A DNA stretch of 10,815 bases from positions 1 through 10,815 of the forward strand of contig CAMLKG010000057.1 of assembly GCA_946480695.1 (NCBI GenBank), given 5' to 3'. Positions 1-10,815 of this stretch are shown one piece after another. This DNA comes from an uncultured Cellvibrio sp. (GTDB lineage: Bacteria; Pseudomonadota; Gammaproteobacteria; Pseudomonadales; Cellvibrionaceae). Both the position numbers and the translations under genes were made by a program. Position 1 is the stretch's first letter. The number at the start of each line of letters is the position of its first letter. The notes under the pieces are model-generated. The model worked only from the letters and a program-made list of their open reading frames with translations. It was not told the origin of the DNA and did not search any database.

Positions 1-2
1 CC

Positions 3-410
3 AGCGGCGTGATGGCCGAAGACGTGGCCAAGCGCCTGATTGACTACGGCTTCCACGCGCCCACGCTGAGCTTCCCCGTGCCCAACACGCTGATGGTGGA
101 GCCCACCGAGAGTGAGACGCTGTTCGAGCTGGACCGCTTCATCGACGCGATGATCGCCATCCGCGAAGAGATCCGCCAGATCGAAGCGGGCAAGCTGCCG
201 CAGGACAACAACCCGCTCAAGAACGCACCCCACACGGCCGAGAGCCTGCTGGCTGGCGAATGGGCCCGCCCCTACACCCGCGAAGCCGCCGCCTACCCCG
301 TGGCCGCCCTGCGCAGCAACAAATACTGGTCGCCCGTGGGTCGCGTGGACAATGTGTGGGGTGACCGGAATCTGTCCTGCAGCTGCATTCCGGTGGCGGA
401 TTACGCCTGA
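3..410 (+). CDS. gcvP: Glycine dehydrogenase (decarboxylating), P-protein, C-terminal part (5' truncated by window edge)
   Basis: This is the last 135 residues of the PLP-dependent P-protein of the glycine cleavage system, which decarboxylates glycine and passes the aminomethyl group to lipoyl-GcvH in the cytoplasm. The frame is open from the first complete codon and ends at TGA 408-410. The C-terminal family signatures are clear: [24 protein letters not shown] near the start, then [48 protein letters not shown] and the terminal CSCIPVADY. The full protein is normally about 950-970 residues, so roughly 85% lies outside the window. The usual Phe in RNLxCSC is Ser here, which is minor. Base composition is GC-rich, unlike the operon downstream, and the sequence style fits Burkholderiales. 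The gene faces the end of the minus-strand operon. Confidence 0.94.
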
Positions 411-942: not shown

Positions 943-2688
943 TCAGTTCCCCATCCACGCAATTCCAGGAAAATCAATGGGATCCTCCACGCCGCGTGCT
1001 ACATCAACAGGTATATCAAACCCGATATCCACTTTCCGAATATCACCAATGTTAACCACATTCTTACCAGTCAACATAATAAGCGCACCATGCTCACCCA
1101 CATTGCGCGAACCCGAGAAATAATCGATATTTCCATTCATCGATTCAACACGCAATTCTACTTTCACCAGGTGCGTACCTGCCTGAACTGGTTTTACCAA
1201 GACAGCTGCTGCAACCAAATTGTTACCCGACCGCAACGAAGAAGGCCGGCCTATAAAAAAGAGGCGCTTATTGACACGAAGTTGCCCGTCCTCCCACGCA
1301 GGCGGCATGTTAAGGGACCTACAGCCTCTCTGGTACATCCAATTTGCATTTTTCCACCACGGATTTATGGGCACACAAAGCGGCGTGGTGCCATCATCAA
1401 TCGCAAAAGCCAGTGCTTGCCATTGTGAATTACCTATAGTGGGCGGAAGAGGCTCATTGCTTGCACGAAGTGCAAATCCCCACCAACCTGTCAAGCCAAA
1501 CCACACCAAGAACAAAAGTGCCATCAACTCATTTGAGAAGCGAATTTTCCACCCCACCTCCAGCGTGCGACCTAAATGACAAATCAAGCCGCAAATCAAT
1601 AATATTGTTCCAAAAAATCCAACAATAGTATGCCTATAAACTGGGACACCCGAAAGCTTTGCAGCATTGACGGTCCAAGAATCACTTAATGCAAAAGCAT
1701 TTATAAAAAAATTAAAAAAAGAAAGACACAAACCTACAAAAATCAACGCATTGGCAGCACATCGCCGAAAAAAAACTAAATATACACTGACTGATAGAAT
1801 AATCAATCCCACAAGCATAAACATGGGCTTTTTTAGCACCACTACCGGGCCTATCGCAAACCCCCCCAAAAAACCCAAAAAATACTTGATGGAAGCGAGT
1901 AATTTCACGCCTAGAGCGATGTCATTCTCCCTAAATGGCATTGCACCCGTCTTAGAGCTGACAAACATTTGCAAGCACTGGATCAATCCCACTAAAAGAG
2001 CGGCAATTGCAACGGCGCGAAACCTGGAACGGCTGAATACCGCAACGACAACCATCGCGGGTAAAGTGGCAAGAAGTGCAGGCTTGGACAACATGAATAT
2101 TGGCACAAACCAAGCCCACCATGGACTCTCCTCACTTCCATCTACCAGTGCAAGAGCAGTCACCAAAGCAACAAAAAATGCTGCAAAATAGCTGAAGTTT
2201 ATAAAATTCTTTGTTTCAAAATCCGCCACAGCCAATACCGAAAAGGCGGAAAAAAAACGAAGCAGATCACTGCTTACCAATTTTCGGAAAGGTGCTAAGC
2301 AAAAAACCCCCACCAACATGGCAGAGAGCAGAACGGCTGACCAAGTATAAAAGTACGGAATCCAGGCAGCAAAAAAACCAAATTGATTTCCGAGAAAAGC
2401 AAGCAGCCGCTGAGGCAAGGGAATATACCCGGCATCAGTTGAAAACAGCTGCTGCCAAATCGAGGGGGAATCTGCGTACGGGTAGTAGTTGGTCGCCATC
2501 TCGGCCCACATCTCACCGCCTAGCATCCACGTAGGTTGCATTGTCAGCTGCGCAGCCACATACAGGAGTACGAACATAGCAAACAACCACGCAGGCCGTC
2601 GGCTAAGCGTTGCGCCTGAATGGGACGGTAACGCCTTCAACGCAAACAACTTATCGCGCATTTGGCGAAATCGCTCAACCATCCTCAT
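943..2688 (-). CDS. Polytopic inner-membrane protein, GT-C-like, candidate glycosyltransferase
   Basis: This 581-residue protein is last in the operon. After a basic cytoplasmic N-terminus (1-32) come about ten hydrophobic segments, the first at 34-50 and the last near 387-405. A long loop follows the first helix (51-105) and contains GEMWAE and a proline- and tyrosine-rich stretch. Residues about 410-581 form a hydrophilic tail that I place in the periplasm. A long acidic first loop plus a periplasmic tail is typical of GT-C glycosyltransferases that use polyprenyl-phosphate sugars, but I recognise no specific family and see no clear DxD motif, so the transferase role is inference. The start ATG (2688-2686) overlaps the aldolase stop as ATGA. 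No Shine-Dalgarno sequence is evident, so translation is probably coupled; an ATG two codons later is an alternative. A G7 tract lies inside the gene (residues ~275). Confidence 0.72.
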   Translation of the reverse strand: MRMVERFRQMRDKLFALKALPSHSGATLSRRPAWLFAMFVLLYVAAQLTMQPTWMLGGEMWAEMATNYYPYADSPSIWQQLFSTDAGYIPLPQRLLAFLGNQFGFFAAWIPYFYTWSAVLLSAMLVGVFCLAPFRKLVSSDLLRFFSAFSVLAVADFETKNFINFSYFAAFFVALVTALALVDGSEESPWWAWFVPIFMLSKPALLATLPAMVVVAVFSRSRFRAVAIAALLVGLIQCLQMFVSSKTGAMPFRENDIALGVKLLASIKYFLGFLGGFAIGPVVVLKKPMFMLVGLIILSVSVYLVFFRRCAANALIFVGLCLSFFNFFINAFALSDSWTVNAAKLSGVPVYRHTIVGFFGTILLICGLICHLGRTLEVGWKIRFSNELMALLFLVWFGLTGWWGFALRASNEPLPPTIGNSQWQALAFAIDDGTTPLCVPINPWWKNANWMYQRGCRSLNMPPAWEDGQLRVNKRLFFIGRPSSLRSGNNLVAAAVLVKPVQAGTHLVKVELRVESMNGNIDYFSGSRNVGEHGALIMLTGKNVVNIGDIRKVDIGFDIPVDVARGVEDPIDFPGIAWMGN

Positions 2689-3737
2689 GCCGAAGGAGTA
2701 CCCATGGTTACCGCAATTTTTGCGAGATTCATCCTATATTTCTCGGCATCCCAATTCAATAACTCCGCAATTTGGTCCATCGACAGCACATTCAAACTGT
2801 GATCTGGTTGCTGCCGAACCAAGACATCAAAGTAGCACCGGAGTTGCGCTTGCTTTGCCTCTGTAAATGAAGGTTTCGCGAACACTCCTTTGCCGCCGAC
2901 GAAGACAAGTTCGGGCGACGAATCGCCACCGCGAACAGCATCCAGAACTCCCTCCTCAGATGTATACACGTGCGCAATAGGGCCTAGAAAAACAACATGA
3001 TCTGGATACAAAGCCCAGTCGGATTGCAGTCTCGAAAAAAGTCTACCATCCAGCGCCAATTGCTGAATACCGGTATCGTTGATAAGGTTATAGGTAGGCA
3101 CGGAGCTCCGTCCAGAAAATGGCAAAAATTCAGGATCCTGAATTATTCGATCACACGCTAGACGCCTTAATATCATCGAAAGAATATCATCTATTTCCGC
3201 GATCCTATCCCCTCCGATCACTACACCGTGATTCGCCAGGAAAATCACATTCAGCCCTTTATGCCCCCTAAGGATTTCAGCGATAGCGCTTGCAAGACAT
3301 TCGCCCGGCTTTCGATAATCTATCGCAGCAAATCTAACGATGCCCTCCAAAAGATTTTGCAAATCGTCAAAATAATTTTTTCGAACCAGATGCGCCAAGG
3401 CTTCTACGGCATGCAAATGCAAGACAACTCGGTGCGGCATTAGCGCATGCAGCATGGTCTCAATAGATGGTCTTAACGCAAAATCCCCAACGACCTTTGG
3501 TGTCGTCGTAAATCTTTCCTGCAATATTGCGGCATTCAGATCAGCCAGATCAACTGGGACGAAAATCTCTTCATTTTGAGCTTTTGATAGCCAAGTGCCG
3601 GATGCTTTAATCCAGAGATGATTTCCATCCTTCCATGAGACATTCCCGCCCGCCCCTTGCACCAGTAACGAATCTGTGCCGATTTTTCCGCAGTAATTCC
3701 GAACGTCGCGCTCGACTATAGTGTTAACGCTAATCAT
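2685..3737 (-). CDS. Class II (zinc) aldolase/adducin-family protein
   Basis: This 350-residue protein carries the class II aldolase fold, whose members catalyse zinc-dependent retro-aldol, aldol or epimerase reactions on sugar phosphates. Visible landmarks are the phosphate-binding QGAGGNVSW (27-35), KASGTWL (44-50), the PSIETMLH stretch with the probable catalytic Glu93, the zinc ligands His107 and His109 in VLHLHA, and a third His170 in ANHGVV. The second half (230-350) has YPDHVVFLGP and, near the end, LLNWDAEKYR, which I associate with a longer subfamily related to the N-terminal half of rhamnulose-phosphate aldolase/dehydrogenase fusions. I chose ATG 3737-3735, one base after the HAD stop, because homology begins there; a frame extension upstream to 3797 would overlap the HAD gene and adds no family sequence. 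The substrate is unknown. In this setting it may make or cleave the carbon skeleton of a glycan precursor. Confidence 0.87.
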   Translation of the reverse strand: MISVNTIVERDVRNYCGKIGTDSLLVQGAGGNVSWKDGNHLWIKASGTWLSKAQNEEIFVPVDLADLNAAILQERFTTTPKVVGDFALRPSIETMLHALMPHRVVLHLHAVEALAHLVRKNYFDDLQNLLEGIVRFAAIDYRKPGECLASAIAEILRGHKGLNVIFLANHGVVIGGDRIAEIDDILSMILRRLACDRIIQDPEFLPFSGRSSVPTYNLINDTGIQQLALDGRLFSRLQSDWALYPDHVVFLGPIAHVYTSEEGVLDAVRGGDSSPELVFVGGKGVFAKPSFTEAKQAQLRCYFDVLVRQQPDHSLNVLSMDQIAELLNWDAEKYRMNLAKIAVTMGTPSA

Positions 3738-3738
3738 C

Positions 3739-4482
3739 TCAACCAACCATTTCTTTGAGCAGCTTTCGCAACTCAGCAAACTCATCGAAGATTGCATCGG
3801 GCTCGGCCGGACCTTCGCCTATCTTGACTCCTTGATGGATTTTCTGAAGAGTCACGGCATTAATTTTTTCTCGCGCCCCTTGTATGTCGTTGATGGGACT
3901 GTCGCCAATCATCCAAATGCATTCTCCCTTTGGGCGCATCTTTTGCAGTGCGATTTCAAACGGCGCTTCGTGCGGTTTGTCGAAGCCTGCCTCTTCACTT
4001 GTGACGATGTAGTCAAAATAGTGATCCAGACCAAAATACACTACTTTCCTAAATTGAATCTGAGCAGTCAGATCTGTAACAATGGCAGTAGGAATACCCA
4101 AGAGGCGGATGTCGTCCAGCAACTCTTTAACTTCGTCGAAGAGAATAGCATTGCTGAGAAAAGTTCTCCAGTATGTCTGCTCGAAATCCAAAGCAAGGAG
4201 GACCTGAGATCCCAAACCCATAATTTCCAGCATCCTCTGCAAGTAAAGCAATCGACTATGGGAAGATGCAGTATTTTTTAGACGAGATTTAACTTCCGAT
4301 CGAGCTTGACTAAACGCATTATCAAAATCCTCTACAGATATTGAAAAACTCTTAACAGCCTTTTCTCGGATCGCCTGTTGCGCAGCGGAATGCGCGGGAT
4401 CATAAGGATACAACGTGTTATCTGTATCAAACAGGATCGCATCAGGAAGACGATCAAATTGCCTATTATTAATAATCTTCAT
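3739..4482 (-). CDS. HAD-superfamily phosphatase
   Basis: This is a 247-residue cytoplasmic HAD hydrolase with a complete set of motifs. Motif I is FDTDNT (Asp19 nucleophile, Asp21 acid/base), motif II is IVTDLT (Thr136), motif III is Lys169 in GFDKPHEAPFE, and motif IV is GDSPINDIQGA (Asp194 and Asp199 for magnesium). An alpha-helical cap of subclass I lies between motif I and motif II. The closest general types are phosphoglycolate-phosphatase-like and haloacid-dehalogenase-like phosphatases. The substrate cannot be read from sequence, but its place between a sugar kinase domain and an aldolase suggests a phosphorylated intermediate of a sugar or polyol. Its ATG overlaps the preceding stop as ATGA, and no Shine-Dalgarno is visible, so it is probably translationally coupled. 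Confidence 0.9.
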   Translation of the reverse strand: MKIINNRQFDRLPDAILFDTDNTLYPYDPAHSAAQQAIREKAVKSFSISVEDFDNAFSQARSEVKSRLKNTASSHSRLLYLQRMLEIMGLGSQVLLALDFEQTYWRTFLSNAILFDEVKELLDDIRLLGIPTAIVTDLTAQIQFRKVVYFGLDHYFDYIVTSEEAGFDKPHEAPFEIALQKMRPKGECIWMIGDSPINDIQGAREKINAVTLQKIHQGVKIGEGPAEPDAIFDEFAELRKLLKEMVG

Positions 4483-6533
4483 TTAATAAATCGCGTGGTC
4501 AGAGCTTGATTAATATGCGTAAGGGTTATCAATTGCATCAGGCCCAGCATCCCATCCTGCCATCTTGGCGAAATATCCATGAAGTCACGAACACGAGGAC
4601 ATAACATCTCGGCGGCCATGGCAACATCCTCAGCGGACGTCTCACCTTCAATCGTGAGTTGTACTTGCGAGCCATCGTCACTCATCGCTACGTCAACATG
4701 CAAGCCGCAAACGCCCACCAAGATTCTATGAATAGTAAGCTCATTAAATCCATTTCGAGTATTAACAACCAATTTCAAACGAAGTGGATGGTTATCATCC
4801 ACACCCTCGAGCATTCTAGGATGAATCGGCTGAAGAGAAAGCACCAAATCCGCATACCGGGCTTGTGGGCGAATAAACTGCTCTGAATCCGGCTCTCTTT
4901 TTTCAAATGAACTCAGAACCTTTTCAAGAGTATGTCCGCGCTGATGCACATCTCGTCTGATTTTGAAATAGCGGCGCAATCCTTCATCGATCTCTAGATA
5001 AATTTTAAGATGATAACAATCCCGAAGTGCTCGAAGATATAGTGCATGCAATCCGCTCGCAATAATAAAGTCATTGCTATGCAGCACAAAGGGCCTGCTC
5101 ATTTTTCCAGTCTTGTGATCGTAGTGTCGCGAAAGGATCTTCTTCCCATCCGATAATGAGACAAGGTCATTGCAATATCCCTCCAGATCATTCGCCATGG
5201 GATTTAAATGCGTCATTACCTGCCACATCGGCTTTTGTCTGTCCCACAAATGATAATCATCCCCGGAAAGCTTGACTGTCGAATGATCACCAAACAACCC
5301 CGAGATCGCATCAGCGAAGGTGTCTTTGCCCGCCCCGGAATCACCGGCAATTCCCAGAACAAACGGATTGCGGCTAAGGCGAAAGAAATCATTTCGACTG
5401 ATAGTTTCTCGCCAAATTCTAATAGCAAGAATCCCGCCAATCGCAGCCGTCGCCGTGTAAAAAAGTGACGCGGTGTGCGCGCTCGATGATGCGGAGATTA
5501 GAAAGAAGTTGGCAAGAGCGACCTGACTGCCATTTGAAAAATGTAAAGTTGTCAAAAACAGTGTGCTCGCGACATATACCGCCGAAAATGCTCCTACCAG
5601 CAACACAGCAATGCGACCACTCATCGCCTGGTAGAGAACGAGGAATGGAATGCACCATACAAACCACCCGGGGGAAGAAGGCGTCAATACGACAACCAGC
5701 AGAAACGACATACCAATAGTGGCATGAAGTAACTCAAAGTTAAGGCGGCGAACTCGCCATGTTAGGTAAAGAACGAGTAGATAAGTCAGGGGAACAACAA
5801 AAACGTAAACATTGCCCGCAAGGCCTACTGCCAACCGGTATACCTTTTCCATTTCTGGATTGCTTAGCAGCATCCGCATGCCAGCGGAAGATAATACGAA
5901 GGCTCCGCCAAGCACCAAAGCTGCGACGGAAAAACCTCCCGCAAACTCAAGCGCCCGCAGCTTGAGAGCGCGATTGTGAATAAAGTAGATCGCAAAAAAG
6001 GGAGCTGCCACTATCATGCTCAGCTTTGCTGAGACTGCGACCGCCAAAAGCACTCCGGCCCATCTCAAATCCACTCTGCGGACACAGAGCATTGAAAGAA
6101 CTAAGAACAAGGCAGGAATTAGATCATTTAACCCAAAACCATAACTCGCAAAAATAATAATAGGAGACAACCAGTATGTCAACAAAATCAATTTCTGCCG
6201 ACCAGGGAGAAGTTTTTGAAGCGTTAAAAGTACACAAAAGTCGGCGCACAACAATGTCAAATCGTACGCGTATTCCAGCGGACCGCCAATGAGCTTCGCA
6301 ACCAGCACGAAAGGCAGAAATGGTAGCCACATCGCATATCCATACGGAAATGCAATGGGGTCACCACCCTCCCTCATCCACACGGACCAGGGATCGAGAT
6401 TGAATACGGACGTGCCCACGTCCAGGAATGGGACATACCAAGCTGTGATGGGCAATGGACTCATCACAACTATGAGTACCACCCGAAGAAGTAGCCCCGC
6501 AAGAAACAGCGGGTCGAGAAGCAGCTTTTTCAT
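4479..6533 (-). CDS. Fusion: GT-C-like membrane glycosyltransferase + phosphoribulokinase/uridine-kinase-type kinase
   Basis: This 684-residue protein has two distinct halves. Residues 1-375 are a polytopic membrane domain. Its long first loop (about 27-70) contains NLDPWSVWMREGG and FPYGYAMWLPF, which resembles GT-C enzymes of the GT87/PIG-M type. Residues 390-684 form a soluble kinase of about 295 residues, the size of phosphoribulokinase-like enzymes. It has Walker A GDSGAGKDT (397-405), DDYH (425-428, the likely base and substrate region), THLNPMANDL (441-450), HYDHKTGK (470-477), and the lid-type stretch IRRDVHQRGHTLEKVL ending in QFIRPQARYADLVL. The expected Glu of the EGLH motif is Ser493. 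The frame runs through both halves without interruption. The kinase substrate and the sugar moved are unknown. ATGA overlaps occur at both ends, tying it to its neighbours. A sequencing-created fusion is unlikely, because the linker (376-390) is in frame and hydrophilic. Confidence 0.85.
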   Translation of the reverse strand: MKKLLLDPLFLAGLLLRVVLIVVMSPLPITAWYVPFLDVGTSVFNLDPWSVWMREGGDPIAFPYGYAMWLPFLPFVLVAKLIGGPLEYAYDLTLLCADFCVLLTLQKLLPGRQKLILLTYWLSPIIIFASYGFGLNDLIPALFLVLSMLCVRRVDLRWAGVLLAVAVSAKLSMIVAAPFFAIYFIHNRALKLRALEFAGGFSVAALVLGGAFVLSSAGMRMLLSNPEMEKVYRLAVGLAGNVYVFVVPLTYLLVLYLTWRVRRLNFELLHATIGMSFLLVVVLTPSSPGWFVWCIPFLVLYQAMSGRIAVLLVGAFSAVYVASTLFLTTLHFSNGSQVALANFFLISASSSAHTASLFYTATAAIGGILAIRIWRETISRNDFFRLSRNPFVLGIAGDSGAGKDTFADAISGLFGDHSTVKLSGDDYHLWDRQKPMWQVMTHLNPMANDLEGYCNDLVSLSDGKKILSRHYDHKTGKMSRPFVLHSNDFIIASGLHALYLRALRDCYHLKIYLEIDEGLRRYFKIRRDVHQRGHTLEKVLSSFEKREPDSEQFIRPQARYADLVLSLQPIHPRMLEGVDDNHPLRLKLVVNTRNGFNELTIHRILVGVCGLHVDVAMSDDGSQVQLTIEGETSAEDVAMAAEMLCPRVRDFMDISPRWQDGMLGLMQLITLTHINQALTTRFIK

Positions 6534-7135
6534 TTGAAATTAATCTCGACTTCCCACAGATCGGGGCGTTTCGTGCAAACAGCGTCCACCTGGATATGTA
6601 ACCGCCTTAGCAACGAAGACAATGCAGGAATTTCCACAATCGCATCTCGCCCCTGCAATTCGGGGGAAACAATACACAGTTTGAATCCCGCGTTTTTTAA
6701 TCTTCGGGCTTCATCTGGTTTTAGGGAAAAATGCGTGAAACAATCGACCCACACCCAGTCAATTTTACCTGCCAAAGATAGCGCTGTTTCAATGGATTCG
6801 AACTCTGACACTCGTACAGCGCAACGTCGTTCGCCAGCATTCGACCACTTGACCAAATAGGGAAACGATTGGTCCAGAAAGAAGTAGTGTGATATTCCGT
6901 TGGATTTCATCAAAGGTATGAGGTACGACTCTAAACCCTCTTCCTTAACGTTAAGTATGAGGGTCCCATGCTGATATTGAGCAATCCACTCCTCGAATGA
7001 CTCGCCGGGTCTGCAGGGGTCATGATGAATGACAAGTCGCCCATTGTCGGTTCTGATGTCAACTTCGACACCATACTTTTTTTCAGTTAACACCAGTTCT
7101 GCTATCGTGTTTCGACGATGAGAGATGATTTCCAT
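6530..7135 (-). CDS. Glycerophosphodiester-phosphodiesterase-like protein (GDPD/PI-PLC-like TIM barrel)
   Basis: This 201-residue protein lacks a signal peptide and is shorter than typical GDPDs (about 240-250). The catalytic landmarks are kept: His6-Arg7 in ISHRRN, Glu24 and Asp26 in GVEVDIRTDNG, and the second His in VIHHDP (37-38), followed by LILNVKEEGLE at the position of the third strand. The usual HRG is HRR, and the segment between the first His and the EVD metal site is compressed. Later stretches HYFFLDQSFPYL, WVWVDCFT and CIVSPELQGRD look like a distinct subgroup that I associate with capsule or LPS loci rather than lipid turnover. It could hydrolyse or form a phosphodiester in the glycan, but that is inference. 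The start ATG shares one base with the upstream TAA (TAATG), and an AAGAG about nine bases upstream may serve as a ribosome site. Confidence 0.8.
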   Translation of the reverse strand: MEIISHRRNTIAELVLTEKKYGVEVDIRTDNGRLVIHHDPCRPGESFEEWIAQYQHGTLILNVKEEGLESYLIPLMKSNGISHYFFLDQSFPYLVKWSNAGERRCAVRVSEFESIETALSLAGKIDWVWVDCFTHFSLKPDEARRLKNAGFKLCIVSPELQGRDAIVEIPALSSLLRRLHIQVDAVCTKRPDLWEVEINFK

Positions 7136-7830
7136 TACTTAGCTCTTTTCCTCAGTTGGAGGCTGAAATCAATGGTTCTTTTAATAAACTTTCCTTTTGC
7201 CGCCCAATTGACGTTCCAATGCGAAAGGCCATGCGCTCTTTCACCGAACGCGACGGGAAATCGGTGTACTTTTATTCCCTGTTTCTGAGCTTCATAATAT
7301 GCATAAAGATCGATGGAAAAATCTGTCGGAATATTTTTCCAAGAGTCAAAGAATTTTCGTGAAAACATCGTCGGCTGCGCATTGATGTCCCACATCGGCC
7401 GCATCAGAAGTAAAGTTTCAAATACACTCATTCCTACGGTGAAAAATACATCCATAATAGGCCTACCGTAACGACGGCCTTTAACAAATATATCTTCCCC
7501 ATATTTCTCAAACAGCTCAATCCCGGAAAGTACGTCCTGAGGATCAGTTTGCATGTCAGCGTGCGTCCATCCCAACAGCTCTCCTCGTGCAGCCTGTAGT
7601 CCGGCCACGATACCGTATCCGTATCCCTGATTGATTTCAACACGAGTACTTCGGCACCCTGGATACAGCGGAAGCAACTGACTGAGAACCTCGTTCGTAT
7701 TGTCAGTGGACCCGTTGTCCACGAGTACGACTTCAATATTTTTTTTATCGGCCAGTGTTCTGCACCGATTCAAAAGCAATGGAATGTTTTTTGCCTCGTT
7801 GTAGCAAGGAATGACAAGCGAAAATTTCAT
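7135..7830 (-). CDS. Family 2 glycosyltransferase, DPM1/GtrB-like
   Basis: This is a 231-residue GT-A enzyme. The N-terminal nucleotide-binding part has FSLVIPCYNEAKNI (3-16), VVLVDNGSTDNT (34-45) and NQGYGYGIVAGLQAARGE, and the metal site reads HADMQTDP (90-97), where dolichyl/undecaprenyl-phosphate sugar synthases have DxQxDP. There is no C-terminal pair of membrane helices as in GtrB (about 310 residues), so it resembles the short soluble DPM1 type. The family transfers a sugar from a nucleotide donor to polyprenyl phosphate on the cytoplasmic face. The gene directly follows a GtrA-family membrane protein, a common pairing for making and flipping Und-P-sugar. Its ATG overlaps the gtrA-like stop as ATGA, and GGAG lies eight bases upstream. 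The sugar specificity is unknown. Confidence 0.9.
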   Translation of the reverse strand: MKFSLVIPCYNEAKNIPLLLNRCRTLADKKNIEVVLVDNGSTDNTNEVLSQLLPLYPGCRSTRVEINQGYGYGIVAGLQAARGELLGWTHADMQTDPQDVLSGIELFEKYGEDIFVKGRRYGRPIMDVFFTVGMSVFETLLLMRPMWDINAQPTMFSRKFFDSWKNIPTDFSIDLYAYYEAQKQGIKVHRFPVAFGERAHGLSHWNVNWAAKGKFIKRTIDFSLQLRKRAK

Positions 7831-8231
7831 TGGGTTTTCTCCGCTGTCTGACTATGGAAGACAAAAAATTTCATTCCTAAAAAATTAAGAATAGCCGAAA
7901 AACCTGTCGCCATAAAAAAAGCGAGATTTACTGCAAAGGTAGTTTGCCTCAAAATCTTCAATATAAGGGAGTTGACCACAACATTGGCGACGAGCGTGCC
8001 CGCATACAATATCACGAACCGCCATGCAGTGCCAGGCACTTGCGACTTATGCCCAAAAGTCAAAAATCGATTCGCAAAATAGGCAAATACAGTTCCAACC
8101 AAAAATCCAATTGCCTTCGCTGCATCGACTCCGGCCAACTCCAAGTTGACAATGCCGCGGTAGGCCAAAAAATCTACGACTACAGTCGTCACGCCGACGA
8201 TCAAAAATATCGCCAGCTCACGTATTACCAT
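7827..8231 (-). CDS. GtrA-family membrane protein (putative polyprenyl-phosphate-sugar flippase)
   Basis: This 134-residue protein has four predicted membrane helices (about 6-24, 38-56, 71-91 and 99-119) and the two related family stretches NRFLTFG (54-60) and NFLGMKFFVF (116-125). GtrA proteins are thought to move undecaprenyl-phosphate-linked sugars from the cytoplasmic to the periplasmic leaflet, working with a GT2 synthase such as the one encoded next. I chose ATG 8231-8229, giving MVIRELAIFL and the normal GtrA length. The longer open frame up to 8423 would sit in another frame over the nucleotidyltransferase gene and adds only non-family sequence. The start overlaps the end of that gene by 14 bp. 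A short GAAAGAA upstream is the only ribosome-site candidate. Confidence 0.9.
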   Translation of the reverse strand: MVIRELAIFLIVGVTTVVVDFLAYRGIVNLELAGVDAAKAIGFLVGTVFAYFANRFLTFGHKSQVPGTAWRFVILYAGTLVANVVVNSLILKILRQTTFAVNLAFFMATGFSAILNFLGMKFFVFHSQTAEKTQ

Positions 8232-9897
8232 GCTGTTCTTTCGGCAAGCTAGGCACAATAGCTTGGTATGCCTGCTCAAGTCCCTTGACTTGCTCGGAGG
8301 GTACTCGGCTGTCCAACTCCAACCGGTACGGGTGACTCTTCCATTTGTGGAAGCAGGACTGCCAATATTCGAACGTTTTAAGGTCGGCAGGTGTGCCCCA
8401 GCATAAATAGCTGTCCACCTCAAAAAGATAGCATCGTAAACCCAACGCTATCGCGTCATTGATGAGGGAATCAATATAAAATTCTCCATTAACCCGGCCG
8501 TCGCGCTCAAGAAGCCGCTTGTAGGCACGTCGATAATCCGATTCGCGCTTAAAAGTGAAGGTTCCTAAGACGATGGGGTCAGTAGCAGGCGCGTCCAGTG
8601 GTTCCTTTACCGAGACACGGTTAACGACACCATTTTTTGCATCTATCCATCCAAACATATTCGGACGACGCGTGGCGTTCGGGTATGACCGAATGGCCCA
8701 CACAATCACGTCCACTTGGGAATCGTTTGCCAGCTTGGAAAAATGCTCGATATCATAGAGAGCGCCGTTATCGCAAGCACCTATCGTAATCGGTGTATTG
8801 TCTAGCCCTCGCTCCAATGCCATCGCTTCCATGCCAATCGAGGCGGTACAAGCTTGCCCCTCTGTCACGTGATCAATTGTTTTGATGATTGCACGTGGAT
8901 ATAAAGTTTGTAGCTCAGCAATGATATTTGGGTATCCTGCCATGTCCGACCTCAGCACAAAAACGTGCTGCTCGGCAGGCGGAAGGTCATAAGTAGCTTG
9001 AGCCACCATCGACCTGCCTGAAACTGGAATCAGCGGCTTTGTCTGAACATAGCCTTCGTTCACGAAACGCTGGCCCAATCCAGCCATGGGAATCACCACA
9101 GTCCCTTTTGCAGCAGATCGATTCTTCGCCGGAGCAATCAGTCCTTTGAATGCTCTTGACCAGGCATTGTATTCGGCAACATCCTCGGGTGTACCCCACT
9201 GCATGAAGTGCTGCAACGGATAGACCGCCACCGATTTGCCACCTTCCACCAAGATCTTAAAAGCAAGACTTACATAATACTCGCCCCCAACGCTCAGATC
9301 CCGATTCATCACCGCCTCAAACGCCCAGTTCATGAGCTGAGCGGATGAAAAGTAGTATGTCCCACTTGAAGCATATTCATTCATCCGGTCGGATGTATAT
9401 GGTTTCTTCTCCTGTATATCCTGAATCCATCCGTCTTTTTCGAGCATGTACGCGTAGTTTGTACTCCCCAACGAGTGTGGATGAAACCCTTTATAAGCAG
9501 GCACGGCCCCCGCGCAACCCGCCTTCTTCACGAAATCCTTGAAATTGCGCCAATCCCAATAACATGTGAAATCACAATAGTTGACAACGACCTCCTGCGC
9601 TGGATCAAGCAGGTGTGCGACCTGCCGAACCGCATTTATCGGACCCAACTTATGCGGAGGTATGCCAACAATTTTTCCTGTGGGACAGTATTTTCGCAAA
9701 ATTGCCTCCATCCGGTATGAAGGCTCATCAAGATGTTCTTGATTGCAGATAAAAATGAAGTCCCCTTCATTCGGAAACATGTCAATGACATGCGCCACAA
9801 TAGGCTTTCCTTCAATTTCTATCAGTGGCTTGGGGACCTCGTAACCCGCGCGACGAAATCGCTCACCAAAACCCGACATAGGAATAACTATTTGCAA
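8218..9897 (-). CDS. Two-domain (tandem) sugar-phosphate nucleotidyltransferase-type protein
   Basis: This 559-residue cytoplasmic protein contains two complete nucleotidyltransferase GT-A domains in one chain. Domain 1 (1-250) begins IVIPMSGFGERFRRAGYEVPKPL, has Asp109 in VVNYCDFTCYWDW as probable metal ligand, and ends near QWGTPEDV. Domain 2 (265-520) begins VVIPMAGLGQRFVNEGYVQTKPL, has IGACDNGAL (Asp376), and ends near CWGTPADL. The family condenses an NTP with a sugar or polyol phosphate to give an NDP-activated donor. The domains differ enough to suggest different substrates, or one catalytic and one divergent copy. The first gene of the operon, it starts at TTG 9897-9895: the next ATG is residue 7, inside the conserved first strand and loop, so the TTG is needed to keep the first strand, and a good GAGAGG precedes it. 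The nucleotide and sugar cannot be read from sequence. Confidence 0.88.
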   Translation of the reverse strand: MQIVIPMSGFGERFRRAGYEVPKPLIEIEGKPIVAHVIDMFPNEGDFIFICNQEHLDEPSYRMEAILRKYCPTGKIVGIPPHKLGPINAVRQVAHLLDPAQEVVVNYCDFTCYWDWRNFKDFVKKAGCAGAVPAYKGFHPHSLGSTNYAYMLEKDGWIQDIQEKKPYTSDRMNEYASSGTYYFSSAQLMNWAFEAVMNRDLSVGGEYYVSLAFKILVEGGKSVAVYPLQHFMQWGTPEDVAEYNAWSRAFKGLIAPAKNRSAAKGTVVIPMAGLGQRFVNEGYVQTKPLIPVSGRSMVAQATYDLPPAEQHVFVLRSDMAGYPNIIAELQTLYPRAIIKTIDHVTEGQACTASIGMEAMALERGLDNTPITIGACDNGALYDIEHFSKLANDSQVDVIVWAIRSYPNATRRPNMFGWIDAKNGVVNRVSVKEPLDAPATDPIVLGTFTFKRESDYRRAYKRLLERDGRVNGEFYIDSLINDAIALGLRCYLFEVDSYLCWGTPADLKTFEYWQSCFHKWKSHPYRLELDSRVPSEQVKGLEQAYQAIVPSLPKEQHGNT

Positions 9898-10676: not shown

Positions 10677-10815
10677 GTGCGCATCTGCTCTTCCCTCGTA
10701 CTTGCCGGCTCGCTGGCCACTCCGTTTGTCTGCGCCCACGCACAGATCAAGGGCCCTTTAACCACGGCCAGCGGTCTCGTCTATGAATCCCTCAAGGAAG
10801 GCTCCGGCGAATCGC
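10677..10815 (+). CDS. FKBP-type peptidyl-prolyl cis-trans isomerase, exported, N-terminal part (3' truncated by window edge)
   Basis: The visible 46 residues begin with a signal peptide (one Arg, hydrophobic core SSLVLAGSLATPFV, Ala-X-Ala cleavage site in CAHA before Gln23). They continue with TTASGLVYESLKEGSGES, the typical entry strand of FKBP domains of the family that assists folding of periplasmic or outer-membrane proteins. The catalytic core lies outside the window. I chose GTG 10677-10679 because it places the charged residue and hydrophobic core at the N-terminus. An in-frame ATG at 10611 would add 22 residues that fit a signal peptide poorly and has no ribosome site. The ribosome site for the GTG is also weak (AAAGAAA). 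The composition is GC-rich and resembles gcvP, so this marks the return to core chromosome. Confidence 0.75.
   Translation, partial: MRICSSLVLAGSLATPFVCAHAQIKGPLTTASGLVYESLKEGSGES

What the first reader, a model, noticed from the sequence alone, without database searches (positions are those of the whole stretch)
4479..6533. GT-C-like membrane glycosyltransferase fused to a phosphoribulokinase/uridine-kinase-type kinase
The sequence shows one uninterrupted frame with about nine to eleven membrane segments (1-375) followed by a full-length P-loop kinase (Walker A 397-405, DDYH 425-428, RRD...RG lid, 390-684). Kinases of this family are normally soluble enzymes of central or nucleotide metabolism. 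Tethering one to the cytoplasmic face of a transferase that acts in the periplasm suggests a coupling of precursor phosphorylation to glycan assembly, or recycling of a released sugar. I know of no characterised example.
Basis: partly seen in the sequence, partly recalled or inferred. Interest (0 to 1): 0.72.

Follow-up and report, generated by a model that had tools for sequence, protein, structure and literature searches.

The report
Glycosyltransferase fused to phosphoribulokinase-like kinase
A bacterial membrane enzyme that probably attaches sugars to surface glycans is joined to a kinase resembling the one that makes the substrate of carbon fixation, and it appears to move between bacteria in a compact gene cassette whose product is still unknown.

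Summary
The ORF is real: 684 aa, minus strand, 6533-4479. It joins a PIG-M/ALG3-like GT-C membrane domain (1-380) to a kinase (388-684) that resembles phosphoribulokinase (PRK) more than uridine kinase and keeps PRK's Ru5P-ligand residues. The fusion is widespread: the 120 listed of 1,496 homologs cover 98-100% of it, and the five full-length matches in 398 surveyed Pseudomonadota genomes are all fused. It sits in a conserved cassette: tandem nucleotidyltransferase, GtrA, GT2, GDPD-fold protein, this fusion, a HAD nearest archaeal RuBP 5-phosphatase, a class II aldolase and a variable membrane protein. The cassette looks mobile: foreign GC here, a plasmid copy near IS26 in E. coli, and copies in phage contigs beside portal/terminase or tail genes. 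My best reading is a Gtr-like surface-glycan decoration cassette that makes its own precursor from ribulose 5-phosphate by way of RuBP and ribulose 1-phosphate. Substrate, product and GT-C activity are inferred, not shown. My literature searches listed no description of it.

The parts
4479..6533 (-). Gene E: GT-C membrane domain (aa 1-380) + PRK-like kinase with C-terminal PRK domain (aa 388-684)
5394..6533 (-). GT-C domain of E (aa 1-380), PIG-M/ALG3-like
4479..5372 (-). Kinase domain of E (aa 388-684), phosphoribulokinase-like
8218..9897 (-). Gene A: tandem sugar-nucleotidyltransferase (two NTase domains); TTG start uncertain
   Evidence: Lys and Asp positions conserved in both domains
7827..8231 (-). 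Gene B: GtrA-type flippase; the listed ORF runs to 8423, the ATG at 8231 gives 134 aa as in relatives
   Evidence: PF04138 1.5e-14; start
7135..7830 (-). Gene C: GT2, dolichol/polyprenyl-phosphate-sugar synthase-like
   Evidence: PF00535 1.1e-26; best PDB matches DPM synthase and ArnC, then sll0501 lower
6530..7135 (-). Gene D: GDPD-fold phosphodiesterase-like protein, 201 aa
3739..4482 (-). Gene F: HAD phosphatase, closest to archaeal RuBP 5-phosphatase
   Evidence: NF053830 171 bits vs 98 for the next family, 15 of 15 members match; in-genome comparison
2685..3737 (-). Gene G: class II aldolase, RhaD-like N-domain plus C-terminal extension; start 3737 or 3746 (ORF opens at 3797)
   Evidence: PF00596 1.6e-16; Glu and three His in 50 of 50; start options
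943..2688 (-). Gene H: polytopic membrane protein, about 10 hydrophobic segments; the variable member of the cassette

Best explanation
E is a genuine two-domain enzyme at the core of a mobile seven- to eight-gene surface-glycan decoration cassette that works like a Gtr serotype-conversion cluster but carries its own precursor pathway. Shown here: the fusion, its conservation, the predicted folds, conserved catalytic residues, gene linkage and signs of mobility. Inferred: the kinase half, on the cytoplasmic face, phosphorylates C1 of ribulose 5-phosphate (or a close ketopentose 5-phosphate). HAD F removes the 5-phosphate to leave a ketopentose 1-phosphate. G and/or A turn this into the building block: the families nearest G mostly act on ketose 1-phosphates (recalled), and A is a sugar-1-phosphate nucleotidyltransferase by family. 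GT2 C and GtrA B load and flip a polyprenyl-phosphate-linked sugar. The GT-C half of E and the variable membrane protein H transfer it in the periplasm, H being specific for the local acceptor glycan. Fusion would keep precursor supply and the conserved membrane step in fixed stoichiometry at the membrane.
For: Kinase: the PRK subfamily model is the best for the window (200 bits against 88 and 74 for uridine kinase) and matches 56 of 56 members (best E 9.6e-63; the uridine-kinase model also matches 56 of 56, best 7.5e-30). Residues equivalent to the Ru5P and ATP ligands of PRK (named in passages of PMC5241800) are kept: H428 54/56, R432 53/56, Y471 54/56, H473 53/56, K524 54/56, R527 54/56. 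Kinases fetched from three of the same genomes have Tyr for H428 (3 of 3), Tyr/Tyr/Phe for H473 and Arg for K524 (3 of 3); R432 is Ser in two and Arg in one, and Y471 and R527 are shared. One of the three was checked and is uridine-kinase-like. F: in 4 of 4 genomes the cassette HAD scores 164-176 bits against the RuBP-phosphatase model and the next-best HAD 34-62. In haloarchaea RuBP phosphatase and Ru1P aldolase genes form an operon (PMC9700705, passages). Cassette: A, C, D, E, F and G all present in 46 of 52 sources, C-D-E-F adjacent in 40 of 52; they still co-occur when rearranged, or in one genome on other contigs. Different polytopic proteins occupy the H place. Mobility. Conserved GtrA/GtrB, variable GtrC and phage carriage is the pattern described for Salmonella gtr (PMC3688519, passages).
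Confidence: 0.5

Rival explanations
1. Aldose version: the kinase phosphorylates C1 of an aldopentose (or other sugar) 5-phosphate, F removes the distal phosphate, and A makes an NDP-sugar. This is the logic of NDP-heptose synthesis (kinase, GmhB-type HAD, HddC-type nucleotidyltransferase; recalled) applied to a pentose.
For: Kinase + HAD + sugar-1-phosphate NTase is a complete set in the cassette; domain 1 of A best matches heptose-pathway proteins 6jq8/5xhw (5e-06 and 8e-06); the NDP-sugar would feed GT2 C directly.
Against: The kinase keeps ketopentose-ligand residues of PRK and F is nearest a RuBP-specific phosphatase; it leaves aldolase G without a role.
Confidence: 0.22
2. E-F-G is a complete Ru5P -> RuBP -> Ru1P -> DHAP + glycolaldehyde route, a bacterial counterpart of the haloarchaeal non-carboxylating pentose bisphosphate pathway. 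It supplies a C2/C3 unit, or disposes of RuBP, beside an otherwise separate glycan pathway.
For: The same kind of HAD + class II aldolase pair follows RuBP in haloarchaea (PMC9700705, passages); Glu and three His of the aldolase site in 50 of 50 G proteins (roles recalled).
Against: Net flux yields common metabolites and needs no membrane fusion; G is not closest to the haloarchaeal aldolase; in some divergent loci G is separated from E-F.
Confidence: 0.15
3. The GT-C half is a catalytically dead scaffold or lipid-binding anchor (as recalled for PIG-U), and the enzyme is only a membrane-tethered kinase.
For: First-loop acidic residues are not invariant; the GT-C half is less constrained than the kinase (dN/dS 0.094 vs 0.031); PIG-U is among the best folds.
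Against: Invariant polar residues D137, K170, N225 and near-invariant E227, D98; PIG-M bound to Dol-P-Man is the top GT-C match; purifying selection.
Confidence: 0.1
4. It is a uridine/cytidine kinase, as many database records name it.
For: 'uridine kinase' or 'phosphoribulokinase/uridine kinase' is a name given by sources; uridine-kinase models match at 74-88 bits.
Against: The PRK model scores 200 bits; solved PRKs score 97-140 bits and uridine kinases at most 66; the C-terminal PRK domain is present in the model; kinases of the same genomes lack H428, H473 and K524.
Confidence: 0.02
5. Assembly or local fusion artefact of one genome.
For: Some records show two pieces.
Against: The 120 listed of 1,496 homologs cover 98-100% of E and the five full-length matches in 398 genomes are fused; of 340 retrieved proteins compared, the 59 kinase-only ones start inside the fused frame and only one carries more than 40 residues of other sequence before the match.
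Confidence: 0.01

Closest known systems
Gtr serotype-conversion clusters (gtrABC of Salmonella and phages; PMC3688519, passages)
   Same: GtrA, a GT2 polyprenyl-phosphate-sugar synthase-like gene, a variable membrane protein, mobility including phage contigs.
   Different: Five extra conserved genes (tandem NTase, GDPD-fold, GT-C/kinase fusion, HAD, aldolase); GT2 C is 231 aa with one hydrophobic segment.
Class II (plant/cyanobacterial/archaeal) phosphoribulokinase
   Same: Predicted fold over both kinase subdomains, Ru5P and ATP ligand residues.
   Different: Fused to a GT-C membrane protein, GKDT Walker A, glycan-type rather than Calvin-cycle neighbours; below the curated PRK cut-off.
PIG-M / ALG3 / ALG6 / PimE GT-C transferases
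   Same: GT-C membrane fold over residues 1-380.
   Different: C-terminal soluble kinase; sequence identity 9-13%; Pfam ALG3 hit below the cut-off in the window.
Haloarchaeal non-carboxylating pentose bisphosphate pathway (PMC9700705, passages)
   Same: HAD nearest RuBP phosphatase next to a class II aldolase.
   Different: RuBP would come from a PRK-like kinase instead of R15P isomerase; embedded in a glycan cassette; the aldolase is of another subfamily.
NDP-heptose activation (kinase, GmhB HAD, HddC nucleotidyltransferase; recalled)
   Same: Order of chemistry: C1 phosphorylation, distal dephosphorylation, nucleotidyl transfer.
   Different: Other kinase family, pentose-type enzymes, aldolase and membrane fusion.

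Membership tests
Phosphoribulokinase (PRK) | PRK/URK Pfam domain above gathering score | tested here: met
   121.3 vs 22 bits; shared with uridine kinases
Phosphoribulokinase (PRK) | NCBIfam PRK07429 curated cut-off | tested here: not met
   200.1 vs 236 bits
Phosphoribulokinase (PRK) | Ru5P/ATP ligand residues His, Arg, Tyr, His, Lys, Arg named for M. hungatei PRK | tested here: met
   53-54 of 56 at each; residues from PMC5241800 passages; equivalence read from the alignments
Phosphoribulokinase (PRK) | GK[ST] Walker A | tested here: not met
   GKDT, D404 in 52 of 56, T405 in 49 of 56
Phosphoribulokinase (PRK) | ATP-dependent conversion of Ru5P to RuBP | not testable with these tools
   needs an assay
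Uridine kinase (udk) | udk curated cut-offs | tested here: not met
   88 vs 180 and 74 vs 220 bits
GT-C glycosyltransferase (PIG-M/ALG3 type) | GT-C fold | tested here: met
GT-C glycosyltransferase (PIG-M/ALG3 type) | Pfam ALG3 gathering score in the window protein | tested here: not met
   15.9 vs 23.6 bits; 39 of 56 members match at E<=0.01, best 3.9e-07
GT-C glycosyltransferase (PIG-M/ALG3 type) | catalytic Asp in first outer loop | tested here: inconclusive
   D47 50/56 (N in 6), D38 D/E 41/56
RuBP 5-phosphatase (NF053830) | curated cut-off | tested here: not met
   171 vs 330 bits
RuBP 5-phosphatase (NF053830) | nearest HAD family, HAD motifs intact | tested here: met
   best of 33 families for the window F, 15 of 15 members match, best E 1.6e-53 against 1.1e-31 for the next family; motif residues 50-51 of 51
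Ru1P aldolase (haloarchaeal) | match to RU1PAldHalo as best family | tested here: not met
   2 of 17 members, best 6.7e-07; eight RhaD/SDR-type models match 17 of 17
Gtr cluster | gtrA | tested here: met
   PF04138 1.5e-14; B found by BLAST in 39 of 52 sources
Gtr cluster | polyprenyl-phosphate glycosyltransferase gtrB | tested here: met
   GT2 with DPM synthase and ArnC as closest solved relatives, sll0501 among them
Gtr cluster | variable acceptor-specific membrane transferase | tested here: inconclusive
   42 of 52 sources have a polytopic protein of 450+ aa within two genes; several unrelated groups, some may be transporters
Gtr cluster | modifies O-antigen | not testable with these tools
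   needs glycan analysis

The most novel reading that the evidence does not exclude
RuBP and ribulose 1-phosphate are intermediates of a surface-glycan decoration made by a mobile, partly phage-carried cassette in heterotrophic bacteria. This would be a role of PRK chemistry outside carbon fixation and nucleoside breakdown, executed by an enzyme that joins pentulose phosphorylation in the cytosol to sugar transfer in the periplasm.
Probability: 0.35. Interest if true: 0.82.

Novelty: new variant of a known kind. Interest (0 to 1): 0.64.

Why it matters
A widespread enzyme that many records name 'uridine kinase' or 'phosphoribulokinase' is neither by name alone: it is a GT-C/PRK-like fusion tied to glycan genes. 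If the inferred chemistry is right, it adds a non-Rubisco use of RuBP, a decoration precursor for which I found no description, and a class of self-sufficient surface-changing cassettes in phages and plasmids. Cell-surface glycans govern phage adsorption, so such cassettes are natural candidates for superinfection exclusion (inference). Every step is testable with purified proteins.

Tried and rejected
Artefact or local fusion: rejected. Uridine kinase: rejected by family scores and by comparison with kinases of the same genomes. Stand-alone relatives of either half in the same cassette: none seen. The short proteins begin or end inside the fused frame, and five pairs share a contig length (P0181/P0235, P0189/P0295, P0166/P0334, P0167/P0256, P0130/P0307), which suggests broken frames. 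P0124 (384 aa, ends at the linker) and P0267 (508 aa, starts at residue 173, 55 member sequences) were not resolved. The nearest unfused PRK-like kinases in the 398-genome survey (L063, L064) lie beside transketolase and near class II FBP aldolase, i.e. Calvin-type operons.

Literature: searches aimed at the fusion, cassette or related glycans; no listed title or abstract start describes it (14, 16 and 39 listed nothing). sought background. Passages of five papers were seen, no whole text. One search was read for PRK toxicity; the word 'toxic' does not occur there. The paper behind 9qkn/9qko was not found. Reference phages: no record of 50,697 covers 80% of E; five match the kinase part only. 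Pfam names no family for D; the fold was settled by structure. A tree of 45 E proteins has 19 of 42 inner branches open and was not used to date the fusion; it does mix classes and phyla, though several rows are metagenome bins.
Full report
What is there. Window 6533-4479 (minus strand) encodes one 684-aa protein, here gene E. It is the fifth gene of a tightly packed minus-strand run in which neighbours overlap by one or four bases at B-C, C-D, D-E, E-F and G-H (coordinates): A tandem nucleotidyltransferase, B GtrA, C GT2, D 201-aa GDPD-fold protein, E, F HAD, G class II aldolase, H membrane protein. The run (943-9897) has 47% GC, against 66% in the left flank (1-410) and 58% in the last 176 bases. 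By eye the flanks are the end of a glycine dehydrogenase gene on the left and the start of an FKBP-type gene on the right (no family scan). The closest relative, Acidovorax sp. sif1233, carries the cassette between matches to the same two flanks. In 8 of 20 fetched loci of the same genus the two flank genes lie within a few hundred bases of each other. Of the other twelve, one has a gap of about 1.3 kb and eleven show no match to the right flank in the 1.5 kb held.

PRK-like, not uridine-kinase-like. The PRK model beats uridine-kinase models (200 vs 88 and 74 bits in the window; both the PRK model and one uridine-kinase model match 56 of 56 members, best E 9.6e-63 and 7.5e-30). The positions that bind Ru5P or ATP in M. 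hungatei PRK (PMC5241800, passages) are kept in 53-54 of 56 members, using the alignment to solved PRKs. Kinases from three of the same genomes have Tyr for H428 (3 of 3), Tyr, Tyr and Phe for H473, and Arg for K524 (3 of 3). At R432 two have Ser and one Arg; Y471 and R527 are the same in all three. One of them was searched and matches solved uridine kinases best; the other two were not. One departure from PRK is shared by the E family: the residue after the Walker A lysine is Asp in 52 of 56. E also falls short of the curated PRK cut-off, so I call it PRK-like and do not file it as a PRK.

Conservation of the fusion. A whole-length search gave 1,496 proteins at E<=0.001 among 7,995 scored; the 120 listed cover 98-100% of E. 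A scan of genome contigs gave 51 loci. By record title the 44 of these used in the tree fall in Pseudomonadota (39) and one each in Nitrospirota, Acidobacteriota, Planctomycetota, Bdellovibrionota and Thermodesulfobacteriota; many are metagenome bins. Two loci (L004, L051) are identical 22-kb copies in one Pseudomonas piscis genome. In an even draw of 398 Pseudomonadota genomes, 93 had some match. Five of these, the seed included, were full-length fusions and none was GT-C only; the other matches were to the kinase part, a few reaching back to residue 290 at the most (the tool scored at most two candidates per genome). In Pseudomonas, 2 of 298, the seed included, had a match at E<=1e-60. So it is rare and scattered, and fused wherever it was found whole. 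Of 340 retrieved proteins, 159 are full, 86 partial but spanning both halves, 36 GT-C only and 59 kinase only; the kinase-only ones start between residues 342 and 446 of the fused frame.

The cassette. In 52 sources (51 loci plus the window), BLAST found E in 52, F in 51, G in 50, A, C and D in 49 each, B in 39 and H in 12. A, C, D, E, F and G occur together in 46 of 52; C-D-E-F are adjacent in 40. Misses include contig ends and broken genes. In four divergent genomes from the survey C-D-E-F stay together while A, B and G change place or were not found nearby. In one of these, A and G are on other contigs (its G match holds one stop codon, which may be its own end). In Terasakiella (G011) no A was found. 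Presumed catalytic residues of A, C, D, F and G (roles recalled) are kept almost without exception. Of 52 sources, 42 have a polytopic protein of at least 450 aa within two genes, in several unrelated BLAST groups (largest 12, 5, 4, 4). Some of these may be ordinary transporters. Methyltransferases and carbamoyltransferases join several cassettes.

Mobility. A complete A-H set lies on a 33-kb E. coli IncR plasmid about 1.6 kb from an IS26 transposase gene; two of 5,426 complete E. coli genomes carry E, both on plasmids. Other plasmid copies are in Azospirillum and Hirschia. In IMG/VR two contigs carry it. L099 has A (cut by the contig end) to H followed by portal and terminase genes. L100 has it between a CI-like repressor and tail fibre/baseplate genes. 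L100 is 99.98% identical over 14.1 kb to an isolate locus, L037, where the cassette is followed by two proteins of phage families. Two further stretches of L100, one of them over baseplate genes, have 70-71% relatives 22-25 kb away on the same contig of that isolate. No reference phage record covers 80% of E.

How it may work. GT2 + GtrA + a variable membrane transferase is the Gtr arrangement, in which GtrA/GtrB are conserved and GtrC is not and phages carry the set (PMC3688519, passages). The extra genes look like precursor chemistry. F is nearest an archaeal RuBP 5-phosphatase: 15 of 15 members match, and within each of four genomes it stands far above every other HAD, though the model also rings below cut-off in all 14 control genomes. 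The haloarchaeal enzyme removes phosphate from RuBP to leave Ru1P, which a class II aldolase splits into DHAP and glycolaldehyde (PMC9700705, passages). A PRK-like kinase, a RuBP-phosphatase-like HAD and a class II aldolase side by side therefore point to Ru5P, RuBP and Ru1P. Whether Ru1P is then nucleotidylated by A, cleaved or rearranged by G, or both, cannot be told from sequence; G is nearer RhaD-type aldolases. D has the GDPD fold and its presumed catalytic residues and may act on a phosphodiester of the product; this is a guess.

Verdict. The enzyme is a conserved GT-C/PRK-like fusion inside a mobile-looking glycan cassette. Family assignments, linkage and horizontal spread are well supported; substrate, product and GT-C activity are inferred.

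Noticed in passing
window 1-410 and about 10680-10815: A gcvP end and an FKBP-type start (by eye) flank the cassette; in 8 of 20 fetched loci of the same genus the two lie close together without it, so the site looks like an insertion point.
   Followed up: partly
L052 (NZ_CP145712.1) 6022-14984; also NZ_JCAPUP010000005.1: Complete cassette on an E. coli IncR plasmid about 1.6 kb from IS26; a second E. coli plasmid, host Aquarana catesbeiana, carries E.
   Followed up: partly
L004 and L051: Pseudomonas piscis holds two identical stretches of at least 22 kb around the cassette, perhaps a recent duplication or assembly redundancy.
   Followed up: no
L018, L026, L036, L046: Broken E copies (frame breaks or an insertion, e.g. 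in Candidatus Regiella insecticola), suggesting decay in some lineages or sequencing errors.
   Followed up: no
window 6530-7135: D belongs to a conserved GDPD-fold family that Pfam does not recognise, although the plasmid records call it PI-PLC/GDPD family.
   Followed up: yes
L031 12777-14468, L040 12778-15631, L006 1301-2119, L013 8085-8693, L045 7996-8706: Carbamoyltransferases and methyltransferases inside or beside single cassettes, as if the decoration is further modified.
   Followed up: partly
window 943-2688: H has no Pfam family above threshold, nor do most of the replacements scanned; several unrelated polytopic families share this place.
   Followed up: partly
L079 (G736): A genome with a 99% identical gcvP end shows no match to the window's other flank pieces or to E in the 1.5 kb held downstream.
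   Followed up: no
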